A DNA stretch of 46,265 nt from Candidatus Gastranaerophilales bacterium (lineage in GTDB: Bacteria > Cyanobacteriota > Vampirovibrionia > Gastranaerophilales > Gastranaerophilaceae): positions 1 through 46,265 of the forward strand of contig CALUUH010000014.1 in NCBI GenBank assembly GCA_944323875.1. Reading direction: 5' to 3'. How positions within the stretch are numbered: the first letter of the stretch is position 1; each line of letters begins with the position of its first letter. The notes below the pieces were generated by a model. The model worked only from the letters and a program-made list of their open reading frames with translations. It searched no databases and was not told the DNA's origin. The position numbers and the translations under genes are program-made. Of this stretch, positions 36,972 to 37,594 are shown piece after piece.

Positions 36972-37043
36972 GGGACTGTGGCGCAGCGGTAGCGCAGGGG
37001 ACTCATAATCCCTTGGTCGTGGGTTCGAATCCCTCCGGTCCCA
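36972..37043 (+). tRNA. tRNA-Met (anticodon CAU)
   Basis: The 72-nt cloverleaf folds as 7-bp acceptor (GGGACTG with CGGTCCC), 4-bp D stem (GCGC), 5-bp anticodon stem with loop CTCATAA (anticodon CAT), and a TTCGAAT T loop. The T stem has a U-U mismatch (GTGGG with CCCTC). The 3' CCA is not encoded. A CAU tRNA could also be tRNA-Ile2 or initiator; the weakly paired D arm and the acceptor 1-72 G-C pair favour elongator Met or Ile2. Its last 16 bases plus a G start the tandem repeat that follows. A TATATT box lies 10 bases upstream. Confidence 0.92.
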
Positions 37044-37204
37044 GTTTTTGCATCTTGGATTTTTTTAAAAAAGGGATGAGAACCACAAGGCGGAGCCTTG
37101 TCCGGTTCGAGCGACACACGAGCAGAGTGCGAAGGCTTGCCGCCTATATGGATTGATATCAATGGCGGCAACCGGAGTCACGTTTAATGCGAGTGTGTCA
37201 AGAC
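37028..37204 (+). repeat. tRNA-associated tandem repeat, unit 1 (177 bp)
   Basis: The unit starts with AATCCCTCCGGTCCCAG, which is the 3' end of the tRNA gene. It contains TTTTTTTAAAAAA, an ACAAGGC/GCCTTGT hairpin, an 8-bp TTGCCGCC/GGCGGCAA stem around the palindrome ATTGATATCAAT, and GACACAC/GTGTGTC arms. It has no credible coding content. Confidence 0.9.
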
Positions 37205-37382
37205 AATCCCTCCGGTCCCAGTTTTTTGCATCTTGGATTTTTTTAAAAAAGGGATGAGAACCACAAGGCGGAGCCTTGTCCGGTTCGAGCGACACACGAG
37301 CAGAGTGCGAAGGCTTGCCGCCTATATGGATTGATATCAATGGCGGCAACCGGAGTCACGTTTAATGCGAGTGTGTCAAGAC
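37205..37382 (+). repeat. tRNA-associated tandem repeat, unit 2 (178 bp)
   Basis: Essentially identical to unit 1 apart from one extra T in the T run after the tRNA-end copy. The near identity points to recent amplification or ongoing homogenisation. Confidence 0.9.
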
Positions 37383-37560
37383 AATCCCTCCGGTCCCAGT
37401 TTTTTGCATCTTGGATTTTTTTAAAAAAGGGATGAGAACCACAAGGCGGAGCCTTGTCCGGTTCGAGCGACACACGAGCAGAGTGCGAAGGCTTGCCGCC
37501 TATATGGATTGATATCAATGGCGGCAACCGGAGTCACGTTTAATGCGAGTGTGTCAAGAC
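37383..37560 (+). repeat. tRNA-associated tandem repeat, unit 3 (178 bp)
   Basis: Identical to unit 2 as far as read. It is followed at 37561-37577 by a fourth, diverged copy of the tRNA 3' end (AATCCCTCCGGTCTCA), after which the array ends in a T7A7 run. Confidence 0.9.
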
Positions 37561-37594
37561 AATCCCTCCGGTCTCATTTTTTTAAAAAAAGCTT

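What the first reader, a model, noticed from the sequence alone, without database searches (positions are those of the whole stretch)
37028..37577. tRNA-Met 3' end copied into three tandem 178-bp units
Each unit begins with the last 17 bases of the tRNA region (AATCCCTCCGGTCCCAG) and is almost identical to the others, with strong internal stems. A fourth tRNA-end copy closes the array. Duplicated tRNA 3' ends are the mark of site-specific integration, but the units have no ORF. They may be non-coding satellites, residues of serial integration, or a structured RNA repeat read from the tRNA promoter.
Basis: partly seen in the sequence, partly recalled or inferred. Interest (0 to 1): 0.65.

Follow-up and report, generated by a model that had tools for sequence, protein, structure and literature searches.

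The report
tRNA-linked RtT-like repeat array
Right after a methionine tRNA gene sit three copies of a 178-base folded, non-coding unit, each ending in a copy of the tRNA's own 3' end; the same kind of unit follows more than twenty other tRNAs and tmRNA across this gut-bacterium family, each time re-tailored to the neighbouring tRNA, which points to a little-understood kind of tRNA-linked repeat otherwise known as RtT RNA in E. coli.

Summary
Observation confirmed: tRNA-Met(CAT) 36971-37044, three 178-bp units (1 and 2 identical, 3 with two changes), four copies of the tRNA 3' end. It is not a one-off. In this genome 10 of 34 tRNA genes carry a related unit. Across the family (Gastranaerophilales MAGs) units follow 23 tRNA isoacceptors and tmRNA, each ending in a copy of its own tRNA's 3' end (35/41 match at >=12/14; 0.8% against other tRNAs). 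The unit is a three-way junction: a strand complementary to the T-arm, the start of a T-arm copy, a ~95-nt covarying hairpin (P3) inside the T-loop with no target duplication over 2 nt, then the rest of the T-arm and the 3' end. P3 modules swap between tRNAs; copy number at the orthologous tRNA-Met is 3, 2+, 0, 0, 0. The same scaffold occurs in RtT RNA (RF00391) at E. coli tyrT and enteric tRNA-Pro, yet RF00391 does not detect these units. Best reading: an RtT-type tRNA-linked repeat, greatly expanded in this lineage, spreading as a hairpin module and growing by recombination between tRNA-end copies. The mover and any RNA function are unproven. P3 pairing is nearly all Watson-Crick, favouring DNA-level hairpin maintenance.

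The parts
36971..37044 (+). tRNA-Met(CAT), host gene of the array; CCA not encoded
   Evidence: ARAGORN; RF00005 68.9 bits
37028..37044 (+). tRNA 3' end (T-loop position 58/59 to discriminator), original of the copied tail
37045..37222 (+). unit 1
   Evidence: R2 match 37071-37213, 135.5 bits (seed member)
37223..37400 (+). unit 2, identical to unit 1
   Evidence: R2 37249-37391
37401..37578 (+). unit 3; two changes, both in its tail
   Evidence: R2 37427-37569
37073..37084 (+). GGGATGAGAACC of unit 1: strand complementary to the T-arm; GGGAT pairs with the tail ATCCC (P1), GAACC with GGTTC (P2)
   Evidence: folds; pairing follows the local tRNA, permutation p < 1e-4
37104..37110 (+). GGTTCGA of unit 1: partial copy of the T-arm start (T-stem 52-53 and T-loop) before the inserted hairpin
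37111..37205 (+). P3 hairpin of unit 1 (type a) with tandem G-A pairs and conserved internal loops, ending AAGACA, inside the T-loop of the T-arm copy
   Evidence: R1 37105-37205, 89.7 bits; covariation
37205..37221 (+). tail copy 2 of the tRNA-Met 3' end
37383..37399 (+). tail copy 3
37561..37577 (+). tail copy 4, decayed (GGTCTCAT)

Best explanation
The array is a lineage-specific, strongly expanded version of the RtT type of tRNA-linked repeat. SHOWN: each unit is a non-coding three-way-junction element, and its closing helices P1 and P2 are built from pieces of the neighbouring tRNA's T-arm. A ~95-nt hairpin (P3, type a or b) sits in the T-loop of that T-arm copy without a target duplication longer than 2 nt. 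The unit ends in a full copy of the tRNA 3' end, so the real tRNA stays intact upstream. Units are present or absent, and vary in number, at orthologous tRNAs. INFERRED: P3 modules spread as mobile DNA hairpins that insert into hairpin loops (T-arm copies, a REP palindrome, other P3 hairpins), and arrays such as this one then grow or shrink by recombination between the direct tRNA-end copies. INFERRED and not shown: the unit is transcribed by read-through from the tRNA and released as an RtT-like RNA. The recombinase that moves P3 is not identified.
For: Ten of 34 tRNA genes of the genome carry units. 14 of 37 R1 hits lie just 3' of a tRNA on its strand, 0.19 expected, P 7e-23. 41 units at 23 isoacceptors plus tmRNA: 35 match their own tRNA's tail at >=12/14, against 0.8% for other tRNAs. 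Complementary strand: 5/5 pairs with its own tail in 15 of 32, against 0.7%. T-loop split with 0-2 nt overlap in 33 of 39. P3 nearest neighbour sits at a different tRNA in 47 of 55. Same tRNA scaffold with different P3 types: Val in G000 (a) versus G003 (b), Lys, Arg(ccg). Empty sites: tRNA-Met 3 / 2+ / 0 / 0 / 0, Lys and Val. REP CATCCTGAACT|P3|TGTTTCAGGAT in G000, where 10 uninterrupted REPs (up to 1 mismatch) also occur. P3 covariation 235 cells versus <=55 when slid; G-U 1.65% versus 7.8% in tRNA stems, p 4e-13. Array state (units 1 and 2 identical, only the last tail decayed) fits tandem duplication. Same scaffold in RtT at tyrT and at tRNA-Pro, picked up weakly by R2.
Against: No enzyme is tied to the units. 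Y1/RAYT transposases do not track them: none found in G000, G003, G048 and G019, which have many units, but three in G004, which has few. About 20 of 37 R1 copies in this genome are not at tRNAs, so tRNA targeting is not exclusive. Low G-U content could also reflect a very stable RNA. Six of 39 T-loop junctions carry small changes, and the copied 5' T-stem strand is short (mainly positions 52-53; only 18 of 41 match at >=4/5). RtT RNAs are reported as expressed in other bacteria (PMC4986893), so an RNA function cannot be set aside.
Confidence: 0.6

Rival explanations
1. Functional regulatory RNA: each unit is transcribed by read-through of its tRNA and released as an RtT-like sRNA that acts in the response to amino-acid or tRNA supply; the matching T-arm pieces let it mimic or sense its tRNA.
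For: RtT RNAs are described as products of tRNA operons and gave Northern signals in Actinobacillus (PMC4986893). The fold is conserved with covariation and a tandem G-A motif, also reported for RtT (PMC7657543). P1 and P2 follow the local tRNA.
Against: Units are absent at orthologous tRNAs of sister species and absent from some family genomes. Many sit behind a terminator-like hairpin. Related P3 modules occur away from tRNAs. G-U pairs are rare. No promoter or terminator stands out in the Met array.
Confidence: 0.22
2. Whole-unit site-specific integration: a small satellite whose attachment core is the tRNA 3' end (T-loop to discriminator) is inserted repeatedly by an integrase encoded elsewhere, each insertion restoring the tRNA and adding one tail.
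For: Tail copies flank every unit. Different units stack in one array (Lys in G003, Asn in G002 and G005). Some distal tails carry CCA while the proximal gene lacks it, as if they were the displaced original end (L049, L117, L140). A serine-recombinase gene lies upstream of the Asn array in L067.
Against: One integrase would have to accept 24 different cores. Hairpins swap between tRNAs independently of the core, and the T-arm copy is split around P3 itself. No phage or plasmid carries a unit, and no viral contig was found by pattern scan.
Confidence: 0.12
3. Pure replication or recombination by-product: tRNA 3' ends recombine or slip to make duplicated and inverted T-arm pieces, with no mobile module and no function.
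For: Tandem identical copies; solo complementary strand after the terminator in G001 Gln without a unit.
Against: Conserved P3 core, shared by 150 genomes of the family, with strong covariation, the same scaffold in Enterobacteria, and identical end motifs (AAGACA) at unrelated tRNAs.
Confidence: 0.06

Closest known systems
RtT RNA (Rfam RF00391), E. coli tyrT/tyrV repeats and enteric tRNA-Pro copies
   Same: Tandem unit (178 bp at tyrT, ~168 bp at tRNA-Pro) directly 3' of a tRNA; strand GGATGAGAA(CC) complementary to the T-arm; GGTTCGA then a hairpin starting GAGCG; closing copy of the tRNA 3' end from ATCC on; variable copy number (1 to 14 places per E. coli genome); tandem G-A motif (PMC7657543).
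   Different: P3 sequence and its 3' end motif differ (GAGTA/GAGTC versus AAGACA). RF00391 does not match here even at E <= 10. Here 23 isoacceptors and tmRNA are occupied, and P3 copies also occur in REP and in other hairpins.
REP / BIME / REPIN palindromes with RAYT (TnpA-REP) transposases
   Same: Short palindromic non-autonomous DNA repeats, alternating inverted copies, hairpin recognition; a RAYT remnant lies just after the array (37667-37903).
   Different: Unit is ~180 bp with a structured internal loop, tied to tRNA ends; no full Y1 transposase found in this genome, and presence does not track the units.
Integrative elements with tRNA 3'-end attachment sites
   Same: Direct repeat of the tRNA 3' end, tRNA gene kept intact.
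   Different: No integrase, no cargo, many different cores, T-arm copy split by a hairpin.

Membership tests
RtT RNA (RF00391) | Match to the Rfam covariance model at the gathering score | tested here: not met
   No RtT match in 11 unit-bearing loci at E <= 5 nor in the whole genome at E <= 10; E. coli tyrT scores 133-138 bits
RtT RNA (RF00391) | Unit directly 3' of a tRNA, ending in a copy of that tRNA's 3' end | tested here: met
   same in E. coli and Salmonella
RtT RNA (RF00391) | Complementary T-arm strand GGATGAGAA and GGTTCGA before the hairpin | tested here: met
   32 of 41 units have [GT]AGAA in place; alignments; R2 ranks the RtT copies first in the enteric loci, but weakly (E 0.0016-0.5)
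RtT RNA (RF00391) | RNA released from the tRNA transcript | not testable with these tools
   no RNA-seq; reported for other species in PMC4986893
REP/RAYT-mobilised repeat | Genome-encoded Y1 (HUH) transposase accompanying the repeats | tested here: not met
   PF01797 absent in G000, G003, G019, G048 but present in G004; only a truncated RAYT in the window
Integrase-borne tRNA island or satellite | Integrase gene inside or next to the element | tested here: not met
   no integrase ORF in or beside the array in the window
Integrase-borne tRNA island or satellite | Element also found in phage or plasmid form | tested here: not met
   no match in phages or plasmids; viral contigs gave one exact-word hit without an R1 match

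The most novel reading that the evidence does not exclude
RtT-type units are one visible form of a general class of mobile DNA hairpins that insert seamlessly into the loops of other hairpins (T-arm copies at tRNA and tmRNA ends, REP palindromes, each other), acquire flanks matched to the local tRNA, and occur in at least two phyla; their mover is an unknown structure-recognising recombinase.
Probability: 0.3. Interest if true: 0.85.

Novelty: new variant of a known kind. Interest (0 to 1): 0.62.

Why it matters
RtT has been known since the 1980s-90s (own knowledge) as an odd repeat behind E. coli tRNA-Tyr, with no agreed origin or function. Finding the same scaffold behind 23 tRNA isoacceptors and tmRNA in a distant phylum, each copy re-fitted to its own tRNA, shows it is a general tRNA-linked element rather than a tyrT curiosity. 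It also supplies hundreds of natural variants to separate the selfish-DNA from the RNA-function explanation. If the hairpin-into-hairpin insertion is real, it is an unusual route for DNA to spread without harming essential tRNA genes.

Tried and rejected
Rfam at gathering and relaxed thresholds: only tRNA, no family for the unit. RAYT/Y1 transposase as mover: presence does not track the units. Phage or plasmid carriage: none; the single viral contigs exact-word hit has no R1 match at E <= 1 and is taken as chance. Coding potential: the tested reverse ORF has no Pfam match. Hammerhead-like three-way junction (GATGAG) was considered and dropped because the GAAA and GUH core elements are missing. 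Integron attC was considered and dropped: no RYYYAAC...GTTRRRY pair at the ends. A first test with 8 nt of the complementary strand was weak (9 of 41 at >=7/8) because P1 is usually about 5 bp; the anchored 5-nt test was used instead. A first G-U control on tRNA stems was mis-registered and redone. Literature searches found no description of tRNA-linked repeats in Gastranaerophilales.

Full report
WHAT IS THERE. tRNA-Met(CAT) lies at 36971-37044. It is followed by three 178-bp units and four copies of its last 17 bases. Units 1 and 2 are identical; unit 3 differs at two positions, both in the closing tRNA-end copy. One unit folds far better than shuffles, both as RNA (z -3.2) and as DNA (z -3.7). 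There is no credible gene in it. uvrC lies upstream and a truncated RAYT transposase plus a HlyD-AraC fusion lie downstream.

IT IS A FAMILY TIED TO tRNA ENDS. The window is contig C14 of a 1.94-Mb, 49-contig genome. BLAST with one unit hit further places in that genome, and each of the four looked at lay behind a different tRNA: Leu, Val, Gln, Arg. A survey of 34 tRNA genes found units behind ten: Met, Leu(tag), Leu(gag), Val(tac), Gln(ttg), Arg(ccg), Arg(tct), Arg(cct), Lys(ttt), Gly(gcc). A covariance model of the ~99-nt hairpin core (R1) hit 49 of 60 genomes of the family and 153 of 386 genomes of the phylum. 150 of those are in the same family and 3 in other families of the same order. 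A pattern scan of 84,980 species genomes hit six contigs, five titled Gastranaerophilales or Melainabacteria MAGs and one titled uncultured bacterium. In this genome 14 of 37 R1 hits lie just 3' of a tRNA on its strand, 0.19 expected. The rest are mostly hairpins nested in other dispersed repeats, or in the REP palindrome CATCCTGAACT|..|TGTTTCAGGAT, which also occurs uninterrupted.

THE UNIT IS RE-FITTED TO EACH tRNA. In 41 units at 23 isoacceptors plus tmRNA (tmRNA), 35 end in a copy of their own tRNA's 3' end at >=12 of 14 bases, against 0.8% of comparisons with other tRNAs. The order is: tRNA - usually a terminator-like hairpin - strand GGGATGAGAACC (complementary to the T-arm) - small hairpin - GGTTCGA - P3 hairpin ending AAGACA - ATCCC and the rest of the tRNA 3' end. 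The five bases before GAGAA pair perfectly with the start of the local tail in 15 of 32 units, against 0.7% for other tails (permutation p < 1e-4), and the three bases after it follow T-stem positions 53-51. The copied 5' T-stem strand is short, mainly positions 52-53. Thus P1 and P2 of the three-way junction are made from that tRNA's T-arm, and P3 sits in its T-loop. Left and right pieces together restore the T-loop with 0-2 overlapping bases in 33 of 39 units, i.e. there is no target duplication beyond 2 nt. The split point differs between tRNAs (GTT|CGA for Gly, Arg(cct), Asp; GTTC|GA for Lys; GTTCGA| for most).

P3 MOVES, FLANKS STAY LOCAL. Among 55 P3 hairpins assigned to a tRNA, the nearest relative elsewhere sits at a different tRNA in 47. 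The same tRNA can carry different P3 types: Val type a in G000, type b in G003; Lys type b then a in G003. At the orthologous tRNA-Met next to uvrC the number of units is 3 (G000), 2 plus a truncated one (G003), and 0 (G002, G004, G005). In the Met array only the last tail is decayed, as expected if internal tails came by tandem duplication from the gene end.

RNA OR DNA. P3 shows 235 cells with changes on both sides, against at most 55 for slid controls; the full junction also covaries (68 against at most 18). G-U pairs are 21 of 1273 (1.65%), against 83 of 1061 (7.8%) in acceptor and T stems of tRNAs of the same genus (Fisher p 4e-13). This favours pairing kept at DNA level, but a very stable RNA is not excluded.

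COMPARISON WITH KNOWN SYSTEMS. At E. coli tyrT, RF00391 finds four RtT copies, and their sequence has the same scaffold: GGGGAAGGATGAGAA, AAGGTTCGA, a hairpin starting GAGCG, and AATCC...CCACCACCA. RtT copies behind tRNA-Pro of Salmonella and E. coli show it even more clearly: GAGGATGAGAACC ... GAGGTTCGA ... ATCCTCTATCACCGACCA. Copy number varies there too. A model of whole units (R2) ranks the enteric RtT copies first in those loci, but weakly (E 0.0016-0.5). In the other direction, RF00391 gives nothing here even at E <= 10. A covarying tandem G-A motif is reported for RtT (PMC7657543), and tandem G-A positions are conserved in P3 here. RtT RNAs near tRNA-Asn and tRNA-Lys are reported to give Northern signals in Actinobacillus (PMC4986893), and rtT is a length-variable tandem repeat in Salmonella (PMC2658671). 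I therefore call it RtT-like: the same scaffold, but not a member by the Rfam model.

MECHANISM. Best reading (0.6): an RtT-type element whose P3 hairpin is the spreading part and whose arrays change by recombination between tRNA-end copies. The mover is unknown. RAYT is not supported, and phage or plasmid carriage was not found. Regulatory RNA (0.22) and whole-unit integration (0.12) remain open. The observation that some distal tails carry CCA while the gene lacks it (L049, L117, L140) fits displacement of an original gene end and deserves a larger sample.

LIMITS. All relatives are MAGs, so repeats at contig ends can be mis-assembled. Loci were chosen from the best R1 hits. Taxonomy rests on record titles of related contigs. 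No expression data are available.

Noticed in passing
36850-36960: Mirror-image element 5' of the same tRNA: copy of the tRNA 5' end (GGGACTGTGGC), an inserted hairpin (CCGAGCAAAAACAATCC..GGATTGTTTTTGGGAGAGG), then an inverted copy of the tRNA 5' end. G003 has 1, G005 has 3 in tandem, G002 and G004 none; its hairpin core matches roughly thirty other places in the genus, and it folds strongly as DNA (z -4.5).
   Followed up: partly
37667-37903: Remnant of a REP-associated tyrosine transposase (NF047646, E 4e-19; PDB 4er8) with REP-like inverted repeats at 37595-37654, directly after the array; the G003 array is truncated by a similar REP sequence.
   Followed up: yes
37914-38756: ORF that joins a biotin-lipoyl/HlyD-like N-terminus in frame to an AraC-type regulator C-terminus; possible gene fusion by deletion, or an assembly join.
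   Followed up: partly
L010 1436-1470 (also L009, L013, L029, L049, L055): Another small repeat, GTTACTTTTTCTTTGGTAAAAAGAAAAAGTAACC..., abuts tRNA 3' ends or distal tRNA tails at several loci and seems to replace the encoded CCA of tRNA-Val seen in G001, G003 and G004.
   Followed up: no
L137 and L135, around position 1500: Type a hairpins placed at or next to the stop codon of short ORFs in other family genomes, without a tRNA nearby.
   Followed up: no
L199 (G001), after tRNA-Gln: Solo complementary strand GGCGGAAGGAT behind the tRNA terminator with no unit after it: a remnant or a pre-insertion state.
   Followed up: no
L067: tRNA-Asn array in G002 separated from its tRNA by DNA with a truncated serine recombinase; the tail copies may serve as attachment sites for integrating elements.
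   Followed up: partly
window 9898-9940, 11223-11265, 20863-20913, 23175-23209: Short tandem repeats of CACTTACT / TCACTTTAC / AAAGTGAGT type near pseudopilin-like genes.
   Followed up: no
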